A stretch of 64,000 bases of DNA, from positions 25,999-89,998 of IMG/VR virus record IMGVR_UViG_3300019762_000006. One strand, 5' to 3'. Source of the stretch: a virus. A program made the position numbers and the translations under genes. Below the pieces are notes generated by a model, which did no database searches, was not told the DNA's origin, and worked only from the letters and a program-made list of their open reading frames with translations. Positions 16,010 through 59,967 of the stretch are shown in pieces. Within the stretch, counting starts at the first letter, position 1. The number at the start of each line of letters is the position of its first letter.

Positions 16010-16032
16010 TTAAGGGAAAATTAAGAAAGTTA

Positions 16033-16041
16033 TGCTATAAT
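16033..16041 (+). promoter_or_regulatory. Extended -10 host-type promoter for the RHH/endonuclease cassette
   Basis: TGCTATAAT is an exact extended -10 element of bacterial sigma70 promoters, 29 bases upstream of the RHH start codon. No good -35 box is seen, as is usual for the extended class. It gives the cassette its own promoter inside a late operon. A matching element precedes the second cassette. Confidence 0.55.
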
Positions 16042-16069: not shown

Positions 16070-16249
16070 ATGTACAAACAAAATAAACCAGTAAGAGTAG
16101 GTATGACAATTAAATCAGACTTACTAAAAGAAATGAAAGACTACTTAAAACAAGTAAATGAAAACAAGTCACTAAAATACGTAAGTCAGTCAGAGTTTGT
16201 AAATGAGGCAATTGCTCAGCTGTTAAATAAGGAGCTGGGAGATGCGTAG
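16070..16249 (+). CDS. Ribbon-helix-helix regulator of homing cassette 1
   Basis: A 59-residue basic protein too short for routine gene lists. The N-terminal strand (PVRVGMTIKSDL) followed by two helices (LLKEMKDYLKQVN, then SQSEFVNEAIAQLL) is the Arc/CopG/MetJ ribbon-helix-helix pattern, so it probably binds DNA as a dimer. It overlaps the endonuclease start by 8 bp, giving translational coupling. A 59-residue homologue in the same arrangement lies at 31935-32114. The likely role is repression of the cassette promoter just upstream, or guidance of the endonuclease. This role is inferred from fold and position. Confidence 0.75.
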   Translation: MYKQNKPVRVGMTIKSDLLKEMKDYLKQVNENKSLKYVSQSEFVNEAIAQLLNKELGDA

Positions 16250-17126
16250 GTTGACAACAGAAGAATGGATAGAGAAAGCTATAAAAGTTCATGGTAATAA
16301 GTATGACTATAGTAAAGTGAACTACATAACAAATAACACTAAAGTAATAGTTATTTGCCCAATACATGGAGAAATAGAACAAGTGCCACGAAGTCATCTG
16401 GCTACTGTTGGGTGCCAGAAGTGTGCTAATAAAACAAAGCTGGCTAAAGAAGAGTTTATAGAGAGGGCAATAAAAGTACACGGAGATGTATATGATTATA
16501 CTAAGACTGTTTATAAAAATACATATTCGAAAGTGCTCATAACCTGCCCAATACATGGTGACTGGGCACAACTCCCAATGGGTCATCTACAAAGTAGAGG
16601 CTGTCCTAAGTGTGCTATAGAAAGCAGAGTTGCGAAAAACTCAAAAACTACAGAGCAGTTTATAGAGGAAGCTAAGAAAGTGCATAATAGTAAGTATAAC
16701 TATACTAAAGTAGAGTACGTAAATCATAAAGAAAAAGTAATCATAATATGCCCAGAGCATGGAGAGTTTATGCAAAGTCCAAACAGTCATTTAATAGGTA
16801 AAGGATGTCCAAGCTGTGCTGTTACCGGGTTCGATAAAACTAAACCAGGACTGCTATACTACTTAAAAGTAACACTAGAAGATGGTAAAGAGTTGTATAA
16901 AATCGGGATCACCAATAGGTCTGTGAATAGAAGGTTTAATCCAACAGAGTTAAAAAAGATAAAAGTGATAAAAGTAGAAGAATTTAAGTCAGGTAAAGAT
17001 GCTTGGGATAAAGAAAGAGGGATACTAAGTAAGTATAAAGAGTACAAGTACATAGGTCCAGATGTGCTGGACTCAGGCAATACTGAATTGTTCACAGAGA
17101 ATGTAATGGCACTAAAATTGAATTGA
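16242..17126 (+). CDS. Free-standing homing endonuclease: zinc-ribbon repeats plus GIY-YIG (T5orf172/MUG113-like)
   Basis: A 294-residue protein. Three tandem modules (about residues 1-60, 65-122 and 130-190) each read YDYSK..Y......CPIHGE..Q...HL...GCPKC, a DUF723-like zinc ribbon of about 60 residues thought to bind DNA. The C-terminal 100 residues carry YYLKV...LYKIGITNRS..RRF and a downstream KERG, which matches the GIY-YIG nuclease core of the T5orf172/MUG113 group. It overlaps the RHH gene by 8 bp. Homologues occur at 32107-32988 and inside intron 2. It lies exactly at the 3' end of the vRNAP unit, next to a displaced copy of the vRNAP tail, so it has most likely homed into that gene. 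Confidence 0.8.
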   Translation: MRRLTTEEWIEKAIKVHGNKYDYSKVNYITNNTKVIVICPIHGEIEQVPRSHLATVGCQKCANKTKLAKEEFIERAIKVHGDVYDYTKTVYKNTYSKVLITCPIHGDWAQLPMGHLQSRGCPKCAIESRVAKNSKTTEQFIEEAKKVHNSKYNYTKVEYVNHKEKVIIICPEHGEFMQSPNSHLIGKGCPSCAVTGFDKTKPGLLYYLKVTLEDGKELYKIGITNRSVNRRFNPTELKKIKVIKVEEFKSGKDAWDKERGILSKYKEYKYIGPDVLDSGNTELFTENVMALKLN

Positions 17127-31860: not shown

Positions 31861-31895
31861 AATAAATTCCTTTTAAGTTAAAATTAATGTTAATG

Positions 31896-31904
31896 TGTTA
31901 TAAT
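31896..31904 (+). promoter_or_regulatory. Extended -10 host-type promoter for cassette 2
   Basis: TGTTATAAT is an extended -10 sigma70 element 31 bases before the second RHH gene, mirroring the element before cassette 1. It points against the surrounding minus-strand genes, so the cassette has independent expression. Confidence 0.55.
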
Positions 31905-31934
31905 TAGTGTAATAAAATACACAAAGGATAACAC

Positions 31935-32114
31935 ATGATAAAAAAGCAAAAACCTATTAGAGTTCATGCAACAATGGATCCAAAATTGATCCAGCAGATG
32001 AAAGATTACTTACAACAAGTAAATGATGACAAAACTTTAAAGTACGTTAGTCAATCTGAGTTTATTAGTGAAGCAGTTAACCAATTACTTAATATGGAAT
32101 TAAACAATGAGTAA
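31935..32114 (+). CDS. Ribbon-helix-helix regulator of homing cassette 2
   Basis: A 59-residue protein homologous to the one at 16070-16249. Shared cores include KYVSQSEF and the LLN(K/M)EL end, plus the RV....I/MDPKL strand. Again it overlaps the endonuclease gene by 8 bp. Ribbon-helix-helix fold inferred from the strand-helix-helix pattern. Likely autorepressor of the cassette. Confidence 0.75.
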   Translation: MIKKQKPIRVHATMDPKLIQQMKDYLQQVNDDKTLKYVSQSEFISEAVNQLLNMELNNE

Positions 32115-32988
32115 AAAACTTACTACGGAGGAATTCATACAACAATCACAAAAAATTCATGTGTACAAATACACTTATTCTAATACTGTATATACAGGTG
32201 CTGCTAATAAAGTCATCATTACATGTCCTAAGCATGGCGACTTTGAGCAGACTCCTCATAATCATAAACAAGGTAAAGGTTGTAGAGCTTGTGCTAATGA
32301 GTCCCTTGCCGAAGATAGAAAAGACTCAATAGATAAAGTAATTCAAAACTTCAAGGCTGTGCATGGTGATTCGTATAAGTACAATAAAATCCAGTACAAA
32401 AATGCCCAGACTAACGTTACAATTACATGTCCTGTGCATGGAGATTTCGAACAAGCTCCTACAAGCCATTTAGCAGGAAGAGGATGCCCTGAATGTGGTA
32501 CTGAAAGGATGAAATCAACACAAGAAGAAGTCTTATTAAAATTTAAATATGCTCACAGAGACAGGTATAAATATGATAAAGTGATTTATAACAATATGAA
32601 TACTAATGTAAGCATAATCTGTCCAGAACATGGCGAATTTACACAAAATCCTGACATTCATATGAGAGGTCATGGATGTCCAAGCTGTTCTAAATCAGGA
32701 TTTGACAAAAAGAAACCTGCAATACTATACTATCTAAAAGTAACAACAGATGATAATCAAGAGTTATACAAAATTGGAATAACAAATAAATCTGTGAATG
32801 AACGGTTTAGCTTAACAGACCTAAAGAAAATTGAAATAATTAAACAAGAAGAATTCAAATCAGGTCAAGATGCTTTAGATAAAGAAACTGAGATTAAACG
32901 AAGGTTTAAAGAATTTCAGTATAAAGGGCCTAACATACTCCAAAATGGAAATACTGAATTATTTACAGTAGACCTATTTAATTTATAA
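32107..32988 (+). CDS. Free-standing homing endonuclease, cassette 2: zinc ribbons plus GIY-YIG
   Basis: A 293-residue paralogue of the protein at 16242-17126. It has three zinc-ribbon modules (CPKHGDFEQTPHNH, CPVHGDFEQAPTSHL, CPEHGEFTQNP) and the C-terminal YYLKVTTDD...LYKIGITNKSVNERF nuclease. Its end overlaps the 3' end of the convergent RecA-like ATPase by 6 bp. It probably homed into or beside that gene. Codon choice (mixed ATT/ATA for Ile) is closer to its neighbours than to cassette 1. Confidence 0.8.
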   Translation: MSKKLTTEEFIQQSQKIHVYKYTYSNTVYTGAANKVIITCPKHGDFEQTPHNHKQGKGCRACANESLAEDRKDSIDKVIQNFKAVHGDSYKYNKIQYKNAQTNVTITCPVHGDFEQAPTSHLAGRGCPECGTERMKSTQEEVLLKFKYAHRDRYKYDKVIYNNMNTNVSIICPEHGEFTQNPDIHMRGHGCPSCSKSGFDKKKPAILYYLKVTTDDNQELYKIGITNKSVNERFSLTDLKKIEIIKQEEFKSGQDALDKETEIKRRFKEFQYKGPNILQNGNTELFTVDLFNL

Positions 32989-39036: not shown

Positions 39037-41178
39037 TTAATCCTTTAAATTTTCTAATTTGTCAACAATTGTTGCTAAATCAGCATTGTTTGGTAAAGTT
39101 ACCATGTCTTTTTGATTGTATCCAATGTCTGCTTCTGCTCTAAGATGAACAGTTTGGTCAATTAGGAAATCTGGTACCATAGTTGCAATAAGGTTGTCGT
39201 TAACCCATTTAATTGCTTGTGGATTGTCATCAATCTCGTAGTACAAAGCGTCATGTATGATGTTAAGTCCCAAAATATTATGTGGATTGCCTTGCTCTAA
39301 GTAAAGTTGTCTAAACTTAGTTGCTGCTATAAGAGTTAGATCAGAGTATCCTTGGAAGTTGGCATTGTTAAGTGCTAATAAATCTCCCTTTGGATTGCTT
39401 GAGTAAACTCGTAGACCCCAGTTGAGGTGTAAATATCCTTGTTCCTGAGATGTTGGGATTACATAGTCTTCTTTGAAGGCTGTAACACCAGGGTATAGTT
39501 CACCATGGTATCTATCAAATATTTCTTGTGTAATACTTCCACCCTTAGAATCGTCTGGAAAGCCTCCATAGGCCAATTTGAACGTACAAGGCTTACTGTC
39601 TGAACGTAAATTAGATGCATCCTTGTTAGAGTCAGTTAAGTCGTAACATAACTTGTTGTACTCAATTGTATTATTAAATGGCACTTCTGTAAGTTCTTCC
39701 CAAGATTCCTTGTAAAATATGGTACTATGTAAAGTATGCATATCCCACATAAGACCTGTTTCTGGATCAGGACTAAGCAACTTAATAGTAGTTTCATCTT
39801 TAGTAAGACAGGCATTAATGTGGTTTTCTAAACCGTTATAATCTACTGCTACCAGAATACGTCCTGGAGGTGCTACAAACATAGACTTAACTGTTTTACC
39901 ATAAACTCTATGCCCAACCGGTTGTGTAACCCCGTTAGCTCCCATTTGGTGCTTCATTGGGGCTTCAATCTTGTCACCACCAGCCTTACCTGAAAGTCTG
40001 CCTGTAAAAGTTCCCATGAGCCGAAGTGCATAGTGTAGTCTACCATCATAAGTTGATCCGTAATACTTTGGTATATACTGAGTAATCATGTTCTTCGACT
40101 GTGCTATTTCAAGATAAAGTTTAATAACTCGTTGAGGCTCTCCTATAGCTGTGTGTGACAGTTCTTTAAGAACACCAGAACTGAACGACATCTCACCAGT
40201 ATCTTTAGATACAATTGGTGAAACTAATCCAAAACTAATCCACATCTGTTTGAGTTGTTGGTAATTCCAAGGATTAAATCCAAGTTGTACGTACTTCCCA
40301 GGATTGTTAATCTTGTCAATACGATTGGCTGCTGTATTCTGTCTAAGACATTCGGCTTCTTCGTAACGTGCTGATAAAGACACAATGTATGGATGGTTAA
40401 ATTGCTTAGCAAATAAAAGTTTAGCAATGGGTGTGTACATAGACTTCAAGTCTGCAGCAGAAACTTTGTCAAATGTTGTACCATCTGCATAATTAACAAT
40501 CCAAGTTCGCATTGCTACATTGTTCTTGTAACCTGCATATTTAGGATGTTTTAGCGACTTGTAAACAGGTGCTAAAAACTTTTCAATACGAGCTTTGTCA
40601 ATAACTGACTGAAATTCAGAGACAATAGGTATGGCATTAATTGTTTCTAAAGTCCTCTTGTTAAATTCTGTAACTTCTGATTCAAGTTTGGTAACTTTAG
40701 ATAAGTCAATTGCTTGTCCATTATGCATCATTTCAACAATTACAGGAATAGCAGGTTTAATAATAAATTCGTAATAGTAACGTTGGTTGAATCCTTCAGT
40801 GTTGTGCCTAGGCTCTGAAGTTGGCATAATCCAATGATCTGGATGTGCTGGTTCTGTGTCGTATTTATCCCAAGCCAACTTAGTTGCCATTGGATCAATC
40901 CCTGCATACTTAATAAGTGCTAAATTGTACTTTGTTGGATCTCCAGTACCAACATACTTAAGATTGGTAACTGTGTGATTCAACTCTGTATCGTATAAAT
41001 CAAATGAAGACTTGTCTTTAGCCCAATCCTGATACAATGTTTTAGCAATCGGTTTAAGACCAGATATACGCTTCTGTGAATCCACATTGTTGTTGTAAAT
41101 TGCTGCTAATAGTTGGGAATCTTCTACATCCTTTGGTAGTTTGCCTGTGTGGTACTTAATAAATTTTAAATCGAATAA
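39037..41178 (-). CDS. DNA polymerase I-type (family A), exon 2
   Basis: The coding sequence continues from exon 1 after removal of the intron, starting LFDLKFIKYHT, which completes the exonuclease II motif. In the 887-residue spliced protein, motif A is VAVDYNGLE (D620), motif B SKPCTFKLAYGG (K703, Y711) and motif C IHDALYY (H816, D817), all as in family A replicases. The spliced length is close to N4 DNA polymerase. Without splicing, a GTG at 41085 would open a 682-residue protein lacking the exonuclease. Confidence 0.9.
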   Translation of the reverse strand, partial: LFDLKFIKYHTGKLPKDVEDSQLLAAIYNNNVDSQKRISGLKPIAKTLYQDWAKDKSSFDLYDTELNHTVTNLKYVGTGDPTKYNLALIKYAGIDPMATKLAWDKYDTEPAHPDHWIMPTSEPRHNTEGFNQRYYYEFIIKPAIPVIVEMMHNGQAIDLSKVTKLESEVTEFNKRTLETINAIPIVSEFQSVIDKARIEKFLAPVYKSLKHPKYAGYKNNVAMRTWIVNYADGTTFDKVSAADLKSMYTPIAKLLFAKQFNHPYIVSLSARYEEAECLRQNTAANRIDKINNPGKYVQLGFNPWNYQQLKQMWISFGLVSPIVSKDTGEMSFSSGVLKELSHTAIGEPQRVIKLYLEIAQSKNMITQYIPKYYGSTYDGRLHYALRLMGTFTGRLSGKAGGDKIEAPMKHQMGANGVTQPVGHRVYGKTVKSMFVAPPGRILVAVDYNGLENHINACLTKDETTIKLLSPDPETGLMWDMHTLHSTIFYKESWEELTEVPFNNTIEYNKLCYDLTDSNKDASNLRSDSKPCTFKLAYGGFPDDSKGGSITQEIFDRYHGELYPGVTAFKEDYVIPTSQEQGYLHLNWGLRVYSSNPKGDLLALNNANFQGYSDLTLIAATKFRQLYLEQGNPHNILGLNIIHDALYYEIDDNPQAIKWVNDNLIATMVPDFLIDQTVHLRAEADIGYNQKDMVTLPNNADLATIVDKLENLKD

Positions 41179-41221
41179 CGTTTACATTCAACACAAGTCG
41201 TTAGTTCGTGCCGGTTCTCGT

Positions 41222-41332
41222 AACTCAAATAATAAACACACAGGCTCGGACATTCTCCGAGATTCCACAGGTCTTATAAACGCCCAGACTTCCTATTATG
41301 TTAGACGACTCTGTGTGTTTATTATTTGAGTT
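41222..41332. repeat. 22-bp perfect inverted repeat in the intron 3' region
   Basis: 41222-41243 (AACTCAAATAATAAACACAC plus AG) is the exact complement of 41311-41332, separated by 67 bases. In the RNA it would make one long AU-rich stem, probably a P9-type extension that brings the 3' splice site near the core. Confidence 0.75.
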
Positions 41333-41518
41333 AATTGAACTCCTACATGTTTCCATGCAGACTAGACTATATCAACATCCACGTGGGATGGAATCCGTTT
41401 CGGACCACTTGGCCCTACTCCCATTTCAGGGATAGTCGTTAGGCTTTTACAGCAAAATAAATTTGCTGATTTAGCACGGTAGGTTGCCCTCGCCATAATG
41501 CGTTAGGGGTTTCCCCGT

Positions 41519-42298
41519 TTAGGATTCTTTAGACATAGGATTGCTCCTATGAATGCCTTTATAATCAGATAGAATTTTAAGAGAGGTTTTATTAGTTGGT
41601 AAAACAACTTCCTCTTCTTGCAACACACCGTTAATTGTATTTGGTAAGTCTAATATACTAATAAAGTAATCATAGGCTTTTGCTGCTTCTAAAGCAGTAG
41701 TATAAGAACCTATTCTGTATGACTTGTATTCAAATCTTACATTTGCCCACCATAAAGCATCGTGAACTTTAAAAACTCCTCTATACCCAGAAGTATTATT
41801 AGATCGTAATTGCCTTGTATTGGCGGCTTGTACAGACATTGATGTGAATCTACAGTTAGATGGTTCATAATTCCCATCATTATCTTTTCTATCAATAGAA
41901 AGGCCTTCTTTCCACAAGGGTTTAGCCCATTTAAAGAAAGTCTCAAAAGATTCTTCCCATTCAGAACACATAGTTATGTTTTTATCCAAATAGCTGATAT
42001 GCCTCTTACCTTTATCACTTTTTACCTTAGATTTAGTATCAGCCCAAACTCTATATAAAGGATGGTCTCGATTAGCTTTCTTAAGACAAGTGCCATTACA
42101 CTCTTTACAGTACAATTGGTTTTTAGCCTTAGTAGTGACAACAGCCTCAAATGAGTTATTGCACATAGTGCACTCAAATAAAGCCATCCGAACCTTTTTA
42201 TAGTAATTTTCTGTAGGCTTTTTCATACCTAAATCTTGTAAGATTTTCATCTTAAATTCCTCTTGTATTAGAGGTTTTAACGGTTTTTGTTTTCGCAT
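41519..42298 (-). CDS. Intron-encoded HNH homing endonuclease with AP2 domain
   Basis: A 259-residue protein. The second ATG has the better distance to AAGGA. An N-terminal zinc ribbon (CTMCNNS ... CKECNGTC) is followed by an HNH-type core (LSIDRKDNDGNYEPSNCRF) and an AP2-like DNA-binding domain (SGYRGVFKVHDALWWANV, GSYTTALEAAKAYD). This is a common homing enzyme architecture in phage introns. It should cut intronless polymerase genes at the exonuclease II site. Confidence 0.88.
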   Translation of the reverse strand: MRKQKPLKPLIQEEFKMKILQDLGMKKPTENYYKKVRMALFECTMCNNSFEAVVTTKAKNQLYCKECNGTCLKKANRDHPLYRVWADTKSKVKSDKGKRHISYLDKNITMCSEWEESFETFFKWAKPLWKEGLSIDRKDNDGNYEPSNCRFTSMSVQAANTRQLRSNNTSGYRGVFKVHDALWWANVRFEYKSYRIGSYTTALEAAKAYDYFISILDLPNTINGVLQEEEVVLPTNKTSLKILSDYKGIHRSNPMSKES

Positions 42299-42364
42299 AA
42301 TCATTCCTTAATAAATGTATGGTACAATTATGCCAAAATGTTGCTTAATATCTGATTAATTTCA

Positions 42365-42886
42365 AGCGTTGTGCCAGACCTGCCTGAGATCTGTTGTAAC
42401 TAGCCAATTAAGCACATAGTCACGTATCTCAGTATTTGGAAATACGATAACAGTAGACTTAAGTAAATTCCATCCAATAGACAACATAGTCAATGGGTTG
42501 AAATGTGGTAAAGTAAGGTTGTGTGCTTCAAAATCTACTGCAACTGTATGGAAATCTGCATCGTAACGTGCTAACCATCTAGCTGCAACATCCAATTCGT
42601 CACAAAAATGTACAATTGGTTCAATATACTGGGATGCTACCACCTCTGCGATAACTGAGACATCTCCACAGTCCTCTACTCGCACTATAGAATCATCCTT
42701 AATCCCCCAATAATCTGTGACTGCTGGTGTGGACAGTCCGTGAATCTCATATCCTAAATCGGAGTACGGTAACTCGTGGATAAGCTTAAGTTCAAACTCT
42801 GCTTCTGACACATCAAATCTGGTTAATAGTTGGTGTCTAATAGACTCCTCGTAGTTCTCAGGCAATTCGGTTAATAGTATTGTCAT
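42365..42886 (-). CDS. DNA polymerase I-type (family A), exon 1 with 3'-5' exonuclease start
   Basis: 174 codons ending at the intron. VAVDFEAHNL holds the DxE exonuclease I motif (D118, E120), and the last residues VWHNA begin exonuclease II. Unspliced, it would stop one codon later. With exon 2 it yields 887 residues. Ribosome site AAGGAACACC. The gene order with SSB and primase nearby agrees with an N4-like replication module. Confidence 0.9.
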
Positions 42887-57387: not shown

Positions 57388-58387
57388 CTAAATTAAGTAT
57401 TCTTGTGCTCTGTCCATAAGTATTGGAAGGTGCTCAAATTTTAAGTTAGATGTCTTATCCAAAGATACTTGAGATGTGTTTGCATAATTTGCTGATAATT
57501 TTGGGTTTGACATAATTGTATCAATAATAAATTGTATACCATCTGTAAGCTTAATACTATTGTCAATATATCTTGTATATACTTCTCCAAGTACAAATCC
57601 AACAAAAGTTGATTGTTCAATATTAGTCTCTAATAAGTTCATCAAGTAAATTCCATCATCAAGTGTGTTAATAAAATTAACAATGTATGAATAAATAGTT
57701 GAGTCAATTGGCTCTCTTTTAGATAAATCAACTAACTCCCTAGACTTGACTGTATTAGTAAAGTCAATTGCTGCGATATACGCTATATGTGTTTGAAATG
57801 CTCTAGAAACTTCTTTAGAAACTTGCATTCCAGCTAATTTATAACCTAATTGGGAAATCTCTGATTCAGAGTAGTAAGAAAGTTCTGCTGCAATTGCAGA
57901 CCAAGCTCTAGCTGTTGCGTATCCAATAACTCCAGTAGTTTCTTCCTCCATACAATTATGAGGTTTGCTCTTTAAGAAAGAGGCCACCAAGTAATGCAGT
58001 CGTTTACCGTAATTCTCGAACCAGTAATCAAAGTTGAATTCAATCTCTAATATTGCCATACGATTACGTACTGCTGAATTAATCCCACTAAAACCTGCTG
58101 ATTCAGAATTGTTCATTGTAAGAACAATTGCAATATTGTCAGATAGTTTATAGTTTCCTAATCTACGTTCGAGTAGTAAACCATAAAAGTATGCTTGCAA
58201 ATGTGGTGAAACCATGTGGAAATCGTCAATAAGTAGTACAGTTGGTTTATCAGCTGCTAATCTGATAGCTTTTGCTACCATCTCTGGAATTGACCAAACA
58301 GTTGCTAATGGTTTAGAACCATCCAGCGAATTCGTTTGGTATTGATCAGCAGCTACAGTATCCGGAAGCGTTATGTTCAGTAAGGTT
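57388..58387 (-). CDS. MoxR-type AAA+ ATPase, exon 2
   Basis: Walker B is VLLIDDFHMVSP, sensor 1 VLTMNNSE, then arginine-finger-like AVRNRMAILE. Spliced to exon 1 it makes a 400-residue protein, a normal MoxR length. The exon begins with one base of the codon split by the intron (frame read ...TLLNITLPDT). It should act with the vWA protein. Without splicing an internal ATG at 58281 would start a protein lacking Walker A. Confidence 0.85.
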
Positions 58388-59764
58388 CGTTAATACCTTA
58401 CCCGTCAAAATGAATTGACTGCTATAGCTCACGCCATAGACCAGACTATATCTTCATCTTTATTGAGACCTAGTACATCAATATTAAAACATTCTGATTC
58501 ACCACCTTTAGCAAAGAACTTTGGTCCTTTATAACGGTGGTTGGAATGTGTTTTTAGAATACGTTGTTCCTCAAGATATGCTTCTTTACCAGTTTGGTAG
58601 ATAGTACTCTTAAGTATTGTGTATTGTAAATTTTTCTCAGTGTTAAATCGTTTTTTAATACCTCTTGATTCAAGAGTTATTCCAATCTTGTAAGCATTAA
58701 AAGCTGGAAAATACAGATAGTATAAGATCGTAGGTTCATTAAAATATTTAGCACGCTTACGATTCTCTCCACAAATTTGACAACCATTGCCGTTTAAATG
58801 ATCACTGGCAGTTTGTGTAAAGTCCCCGTGATAAGGACAAGTAATAATTAACTTGTATTTACCACGAATATAAATAGACTTAGAATAGTCATATTTATTA
58901 CCATGTGTATTTCGTGCCCTTAAAATGAACTCTTCTTTAGTTAATACATTAACATCAGTAGAACCACACTTTGAGCAACCATGCCCTCTTAAGTGGTCTG
59001 CTGGTTGCTGTTCAAATTTGCCGTGAATTGGACAAATGATTGTCACTTTTGTATTGGTGTTTATGTAATTGACTAAAGAGTAATCGTATACTTTATTATG
59101 TATTTGATTGGCTTCTGATATAAAATCATCAGTTGATTTACGTCTAATTTTGGATCTATTAATAACTGCACACTTAGGACATTTCCTATTTAAGTTGAAA
59201 TGGGCATAAGGAGTTTGTAAAAACTCTCCATGTTCAGGACAATTGATAATAATAGGGTTATCCACCCCCAGTATAAACTGATTTGGAGTAGTCATAGTAA
59301 GTATGTGTAGTTGCTATTTGCTCTAAAAGACTATTATACTTTTTAATAGCTGAGTGTTTTTGTTTAATATTTGATGTATCTAATTCCATATAAATTCCTT
59401 AAATAATATTGTAACTTAAGTACGCTTAAATGTTCATTAGATAAACTAGGTTTAAAGATGTCCCCTATTTCCACCCACTTGGGTGTACGTGCAAATGCAC
59501 TAGTCGTTGAACCTTCTCCATATGTTCCCACTTAGGAGCTTGGCTGCTGATTGTCTTATAGTAAACTGTTTTCAAACATTCATATCGTGATTTCTCCGAT
59601 ATTGTAGTAGTTTACCTTAAAGAGGTTCCAGCAATTAAAGGGATTGCTACTATACGTCACCGTATAGCGAGGCCTGCAATAAATTACTATTAGTGTTATA
59701 CATTAATTAATACTATCATTTGTGTATTCTCATCACATTAATTAAATTATATTTTTATAGATTT
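58388..59764 (-). other. Group I intron in the AAA ATPase gene
   Basis: 5' splice after ...CAATTTAT and 3' after ...TTAACG restores 401 codons. The core is easy to see: AATTGCTGGAAC (P4), ACAATCAGCAGCC (P6), GTTCAACGACTA (59501-59512 side of P7) and AAGATATAGTCT (58443-58454). The last lies inside the end of the endonuclease frame. The ORF fills the P8 loop, as in the T4 td-type introns. Ends are inferred. Confidence 0.85.
58429..59389 (-). pseudogene. Intron-encoded zinc-ribbon/GIY-YIG endonuclease, frameshifted
   Basis: Starts at the ATG with AAGGAATTTAT (59389). The first 43 codons end in a stop after YDYSKSVYTGGG. The remainder (58429-59295, CPEHGEFLQTP...) continues one frame away. Deleting one G in the minus-strand G5 run (59265-59269) joins them as YTGVDNPIII and restores the first zinc ribbon. 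It is homologous to the free-standing enzymes at 16242 and 32107, with C-terminal YKIGIT. Either a dead gene, a programmed frameshift, or a sequencing error in a homopolymer. Confidence 0.75.
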
Positions 59765-59967
59765 ATAAATTGACCTGAAAGTACTTCGTGAGTCAAACAG
59801 GGAGCCGATTCAGTTGCTATGTTCATTCCAAGTTCAGTAGCAATAAGTGCGATTGTAGTAGATTTACCCGTACCTGGGACACCTGCTACACATATTGGTG
59901 CTACTGAAGCTCCGTCTAATTGTGCTTGTATGTTTCGTGTAATAATTAATTGTTCGTTTGTTGTCAT
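59765..59967 (-). CDS. MoxR-type AAA+ ATPase, exon 1
   Basis: 67 and two-thirds codons holding Walker A GVPGTGKST (residues 29-37) and the first helix. The frame stops three codons past the intron boundary if not spliced. With exon 2 the protein reads ...LSGQFITLLNITL. ATPase of a MoxR/vWA pair. Confidence 0.85.

What the first reader, a model, noticed from the sequence alone, without database searches (positions are those of the whole stretch)
31896..32988. Second copy of the RHH/endonuclease unit, antiparallel to its neighbours
The second unit has identical architecture (59 aa RHH, 8-bp overlap, 293 aa enzyme, extended -10 promoter) but diverged sequence, and points against the surrounding replication genes. 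Two diverged units in one genome suggest separate homing events with different targets.
Basis: seen in the sequence. Interest (0 to 1): 0.75.

Follow-up and report, generated by a model that had tools for sequence, protein, structure and literature searches.

The report
RHH-coupled phage homing-endonuclease cassette
A selfish two-gene cassette (a tiny DNA-binding protein plus a DNA-cutting "homing" enzyme) has landed at different places in a small group of uncultured phages; the enzyme type is well known, but its constant pairing with a small ribbon-helix-helix protein seems not to have been described.

Summary
Window 31935-32114 (+) encodes a 59-aa ribbon-helix-helix-like protein overlapping by 8 bp a 293-aa T5orf172/GIY-YIG nuclease with three zinc-finger repeats (32107-32988, +), preceded by TGTTATAAT and running against its neighbours. 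Unit 1 (16070-17126) has the same plan (RHH 58%, enzyme 51% identical). A third enzyme of the family lies in a group I intron (58429-59295, -).

Three more RHH+enzyme units exist in related uncultured phage contigs: five units at four sites. One shares the unit 1 site; one sits inside the 3' end of the DNA polymerase gene, with the polymerase tail displaced to its other side; one is head-to-head with an AAA-ATPase gene. In all held relatives with the unit 2 region the site is empty, without DUF5662 too. The two window units are old, separately placed insertions, not a recent duplication. About 100 family enzymes from other contigs lack this RHH; it was not found in cultured phages or the bacterial/archaeal genome collection.

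Most likely: a mobile free-standing homing-endonuclease cassette whose RHH protein represses its own operon (inferred). Leader hairpins over the RHH start codon suggest T4-style translational delay. New variant of a known kind.

The parts
31884..31904 (+). promoter-like element TTAATGTTAATGTGTTATAAT (extended -10 at 31896-31904)
   Evidence: same layout in the G001, G002, G005 units and unit 1; function inferred
31893..31936 (+). leader inverted repeat ATGTGTTAT (31893-31901) / ATAACACAT (31928-31936) with inner stem GTGTA/TACAC; 5' arm overlaps the -10, 3' arm reaches the RHH start codon, SD AAAGGA between
   Evidence: -13.8 kcal/mol, 0 of 200 shuffles as good; fixed window z -5.05
31935..32114 (+). 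RHH-like protein, 59 aa
32107..32988 (+). T5orf172/GIY-YIG endonuclease, 293 aa, overlaps the RHH gene by 8 bp
32224..32292 (+). zinc-finger repeat 1 (residues 40-62)
32428..32496 (+). zinc-finger repeat 2 (residues 108-130)
32620..32688 (+). zinc-finger repeat 3 (residues 172-194)
32716..32976 (+). GIY-YIG (T5orf172/MUG113) nuclease domain, about residues 204-290
32983..32988 (.). TTATAA: shared stop codons of the enzyme (+) and of the convergent ATPase gene (-), six-base tail-to-tail overlap
16018..16041 (+). unit 1 promoter-like element
16070..16249 (+). unit 1 RHH-like protein, 59 aa
16242..17126 (+). unit 1 endonuclease, 294 aa
58429..59295 (-). third family enzyme, 288 aa as listed, without RHH, in the group I intron
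59398..59691 (-). group I intron core (RF00028)
   Evidence: 55.9 bits, E 1.8e-11

Best explanation
Unit 2 is a free-standing homing-endonuclease cassette of two translationally coupled genes. The enzyme uses its zinc-finger array to choose a DNA target and its GIY-YIG domain to cut phage genomes that lack the cassette; repair copies the cassette in (variable placement shown; cutting and repair inferred from the family). The RHH protein binds the cassette's own promoter and limits how much nuclease is made (inferred). A leader hairpin over the RHH start codon would block translation on read-through RNA but not on RNA started at the cassette's own promoter, as in several T4-type homing endonucleases (suggested by sequence). 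The window's two units are separate old insertions.
For: Enzyme domains above their Pfam cut-offs and the KIG.T, R, E and GNTE positions conserved in all units. Five units at four sites. In G001 the unit interrupts the polymerase 3' end and the native tail lies displaced beyond it. Unit 2's site is empty in all relatives held; the G005 site is empty in the window and in G001. A family member sits in a group I intron. dN well below dS in both genes; RHH dN 0.09 against 0.46-0.49 in the zinc-finger part. Hairpins at unit 2, G001 and G002. Precedent: I-TevI autorepression and RBS hairpins (PMC2988022); T5orf172 zinc-finger homing genes (PMC10448857).
Against: No cutting, binding or mobility was measured. 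No RHH operator could be located: the promoter pattern is shared with an RHH-less enzyme and an unrelated gene. Unit 1's hairpin is weak in a fixed window (z -1.36) and the G005 unit has none. The unit 2 slot also gained DUF5662 and a 69-aa gene, so the exact insertion ends are unknown.
Confidence: 0.6

Rival explanations
1. The RHH protein is part of the targeting machinery: it binds DNA or the enzyme and helps place the nuclease, as RHH auxiliary proteins do for conjugative relaxases; it may repress its operon as well.
For: Conserved coupling in five units and strong conservation of the RHH. Relaxosome precedent exists in titles and abstracts retrieved.
Against: Unit 2 and the G001 unit sit at different sites but have the same predicted DNA-reading strand and the same promoter. 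A same-clade enzyme in G001 and about 100 relatives have no RHH.
Confidence: 0.2
2. The pair is a toxin-antitoxin-like or defence module: the RHH neutralises a harmful nuclease, or the nuclease attacks competitors.
For: A small RHH gene ahead of a coupled effector is a common antitoxin-toxin layout (general knowledge). T5orf172 nucleases such as Odn can be turned against phage satellites (PMC10448857).
Against: Close enzymes exist without RHH, one of them in the same phage as an RHH unit; no PADLOC match; variable placement inside and beside essential genes fits homing.
Confidence: 0.1
3. The two units arose by recent duplication inside this phage.
For: Same architecture and promoter pattern.
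Against: Closest RHH of each unit is in another contig (83%, 85% against 58%); unit 1 + G002 supported 98/97; synonymous sites saturated.
Confidence: 0.03

Closest known systems
T5orf172 homing endonucleases with CapR/DUF723 zinc-finger repeats (ICP1, T5-like and other phages; PMC10448857)
   Same: Zinc-finger repeats plus GIY-YIG-type nuclease, next to or inside essential genes, expanded within a phage lineage, modular.
   Different: Here the enzyme is coupled to an RHH gene; the word 'ribbon' does not occur in that paper's main text.
T4 free-standing GIY-YIG seg genes and mobE (PMC2988022)
   Same: Intron-less mobile endonuclease genes between essential genes; some with own promoter and an RNA hairpin hiding the ribosome site.
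   Different: Zinc-finger array instead of the T4 DNA-binding domains; a separate RHH gene is translated first.
I-TevI (T4 td intron; PMC2988022)
   Same: GIY-YIG nuclease; transcript hairpin excluded from RNA made at the nearby promoter; control at its own promoter.
   Different: I-TevI represses itself with its own DNA-binding domain; here a separate protein is proposed to do it, which is unproven.
RHH plus relaxase operons (MobC/PcfF type)
   Same: Small RHH gene ahead of a DNA-cutting enzyme in one operon; autoregulation and recruitment are known there (abstracts).
   Different: GIY-YIG homing-type enzyme, no relaxase and no transfer origin sought or found.

Membership tests
T5orf172 zinc-finger homing endonuclease | T5orf172/GIY-YIG domain | tested here: met
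   PF10544 24.6 bits (cut-off 20) and PF13455 23.5 (22.3); phrog_681 E 1.8e-68
T5orf172 zinc-finger homing endonuclease | CapR/DUF723-type zinc-finger repeats | tested here: met
   PF05265, PF21817, PF14311 above cut-off; three CxxHG...CxxC repeats
T5orf172 zinc-finger homing endonuclease | variable presence next to or inside essential genes | tested here: met
   occupied and empty sites across six related contigs
T5orf172 zinc-finger homing endonuclease | site-specific cutting and biased inheritance | not testable with these tools
   needs enzyme assay or mixed infection
ribbon-helix-helix (MetJ/Arc/CopG) | strand-helix-helix fold and family profile match | tested here: inconclusive
   RHH_3 recurs but below cut-off in all five; Arc-like PHROG E 0.0012 for unit 1; model shows two helices after an extended start, pLDDT 67; no RHH structure among PDB matches except a weak 'Antitoxin' chain at E 1.6
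ribbon-helix-helix (MetJ/Arc/CopG) | binds its own promoter | not testable with these tools
   no operator located by sequence
I-TevI-type translational control | hairpin hides the ribosome site and its 5' arm is absent from RNA made at the near promoter | tested here: inconclusive
   layout present at unit 2, G001, G002; weak at unit 1; absent at G005; 5 of 103 control genes also pass
type II toxin-antitoxin | effector not kept without its partner | tested here: not met
   same-clade enzyme without RHH in G001 and many relatives without it

The most novel reading that the evidence does not exclude
The RHH protein is an integral second subunit of a two-protein homing system: it travels with the cassette, stays nearly fixed while the enzyme's target-reading fingers diverge, and both restrains expression and tethers or licenses the nuclease.
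Probability: 0.2. Interest if true: 0.65.

Novelty: new variant of a known kind. Interest (0 to 1): 0.45.

Why it matters
A homing endonuclease must spread without harming the phage that carries it. I-TevI does this with its own DNA-binding domain and an RNA hairpin. A cassette with a dedicated, conserved RHH partner would be a modular answer to the same problem: the target-reading fingers can diverge while regulation stays fixed. Occupied and empty sites in related contigs give concrete targets for testing.

Tried and rejected
A viral scan with the single enzyme sequence found nothing; alignment queries were needed. The RHH had no convincing relatives in cultured phages or in the genome collection (this scan finds only fairly close relatives). 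PDB fold search with the enzyme model gave nothing significant and the enzyme profile matched no PDB sequence. PDB hits of the RHH profile were mostly designed repeat proteins and nucleoporins over short stretches, ignored. Swapping between RHH and enzyme was suspected (nuclease-domain tree joins the G001 and G005 units 90/90) but not shown: AU p 0.12 and 0.19, synonymous sites saturated. No RHH operator was found: TTAAG-N10/11-TATAAT is shared with an RHH-less enzyme and an unrelated gene and is not above chance. Leader hairpin energy alone is not unusual for these genomes, so z-scores with start occlusion were used; the windows were chosen by eye and overstate unit 1. Toxin-antitoxin and recent duplication were considered and rejected.

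Full report
What is there. The 59-aa product matches ribbon-helix-helix families weakly but repeatedly and is modelled as two helices after an extended start. The 293-aa product is a T5orf172/GIY-YIG nuclease with three zinc-finger repeats. Unit 1 at 16070-17126 has the same plan. A third family member lies inside a group I intron that splits an AAA-ATPase gene: Rfam calls the intron, and the gene is uninterrupted in relatives such as G001, where ...ENLSGLPNE... matches the window's exons ...EVLSG and LPDT....

Relatives. The two RHH proteins aligned together brought in two viral contigs; a third unit was seen through its enzyme in G005 and confirmed with the five-row alignment. In all of them the RHH is followed by a family enzyme, with the same 8-bp overlap in G001 and G002 and a 1-bp overlap in G005. 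G002 (L005) carries the unit at the unit 1 site, after the same large structural-region gene. G001 (L004) carries it at the 3' end of the DNA polymerase gene. G005 (L113) carries it head-to-head with the AAA-ATPase gene. Of 109 family enzyme ORFs in the loci then held (some of them overlapping copies), only the four units then known had this RHH. A few others have an unrelated small DNA-binding gene just upstream: CcdA/RHH-like in L055, CopG-like in L016 (start uncertain), MerR-type in L037 and L058/L061. In 12 sampled cultured-phage loci no RHH gene ends near the enzyme start (in one, L125, the enzyme is broken and could not be judged); three carry a 59-aa membrane-like 'superinfection immunity' gene there instead.

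Mobility. In G001 the polymerase ends NNADLA-CLKNILTKLT, the last part read from the unit. The native kind of tail, intact in G005 (ADLATIEAKLATLAE) and the window (ADLATIVDKLENLKD), remains as LAAIEAKLATLKGNL on the other side of the unit. A caution: the neighbouring 93-aa gene of G001 ends in a near-copy of the same tail, so the event was not simple. At the unit 2 site the ATPase stop abuts a 76-78-aa gene in G001 and G003 (L091/G004 matches at the same place but its ORFs were not listed), a 63-aa then 76-aa gene in G005, and a 260-aa gene in G006. In the window that slot holds the unit, DUF5662 and a 69-aa gene. DUF5662 occurs elsewhere in G005, so the slot took more than one insertion or rearrangement. 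The ATPase C-terminus itself is intact in the window.

History. RHH identities are 83% (unit 2 with G001) and 85% (unit 1 with G002) against 58% between the window units; enzymes are 51-52% identical in all three comparisons. Synonymous sites are saturated or nearly so, while RHH dN is 0.09 and zinc-finger dN 0.46-0.49. The units are old, separately placed and under purifying selection. The RHH changes slowest and the fingers fastest, as expected if fingers read different targets and the RHH does a constant job (inference).

Mechanism. Shown: the two-gene cassette, its variable placement, the nuclease family, and selection on both genes. Suggested by sequence: a promoter just upstream, and a hairpin whose 5' arm overlaps the -10 region and whose 3' arm reaches the start codon. 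Fixed-window z-scores are -5.1 (unit 2), -3.8 (G002), -2.8 (G001), -1.4 (unit 1), 0.3 (G005); 5 of 103 control genes reach z -2 with an occluded start, and two of those five are themselves genes of this enzyme family. The T4 review describes such an arrangement for I-TevI, segB and mobE, and autorepression for I-TevI (PMC2988022). Inferred: RHH binding at the promoter and cutting of unit-less alleles. The predicted DNA-reading strand is identical in unit 2 and G001 (PIRVHATMDP), which share the promoter but not the site. That favours a promoter-reading role, but shared ancestry explains it as well.

Compared with known systems. The enzyme meets the sequence tests for the T5orf172 zinc-finger homing endonucleases (PMC10448857); the RHH coupling is the difference. 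A full-text search for homing endonuclease, ribbon-helix-helix and phage found five papers; from their titles and abstract openings, and the one searched further, none describes such a pairing. The library is incomplete, so novelty is provisional.

Noticed in passing
window 57388-59967 (-): AAA-ATPase gene split by a group I intron that carries the third family enzyme; predicted splice ...EVLSG/LPDT..., uninterrupted in G001 and G005.
   Followed up: yes
window 39037-42886 (-): The DNA polymerase gene is split between 42362 and about 41181 by an insertion carrying a 261-aa ORF (41519-42304) with a DUF4379-like zinc finger; probably another group I intron with a homing gene, not called by Rfam at its cut-off.
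   Followed up: partly
L086 3770-4456 (-) in G001: Same-clade enzyme of 228 aa with two finger repeats and no RHH, sitting two genes below the ATPase, with its own TGGTATAAT and a CCTTAATT/AATTAAGG hairpin before its start.
   Followed up: partly
L092 4556-4630 (+) in G005: An unrelated 162-aa gene has the same leader style (TTAAG-N11-TATAAT, then CCTTTGC/GCAAAGG arms over the -10 region and the ribosome site), so the style may be general in this phage group.
   Followed up: no
L113 1366-1560 in G005: The RHH-linked enzyme has a different N-terminal part (KLLQDLG...ECPIC...CRTCA) resembling that of HNH/AP2-type homing ORFs in the window (41519-42304) and in L092: possible domain shuffling.
   Followed up: no
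L122, L127, L128 1311-1490 (+): In Escherichia phages Bas82 and PJ16 and a Sashavirus, family enzymes antiparallel to tail genes are preceded (1-bp gap) by a 59-aa membrane-like 'superinfection immunity' gene.
   Followed up: partly
L037, L058, L061, L055, L016: Other viral contigs have a MerR-type, CcdA-like or CopG-like small gene just upstream of a family enzyme: possible independent pairing of such enzymes with small DNA-binding proteins.
   Followed up: partly
L004 5622-5903 (-) in G001: The 93-aa gene beside the G001 unit ends in a near-copy of the polymerase C-terminal tail (QDLATIEAKLATLKD), as if a short flank was duplicated.
   Followed up: no
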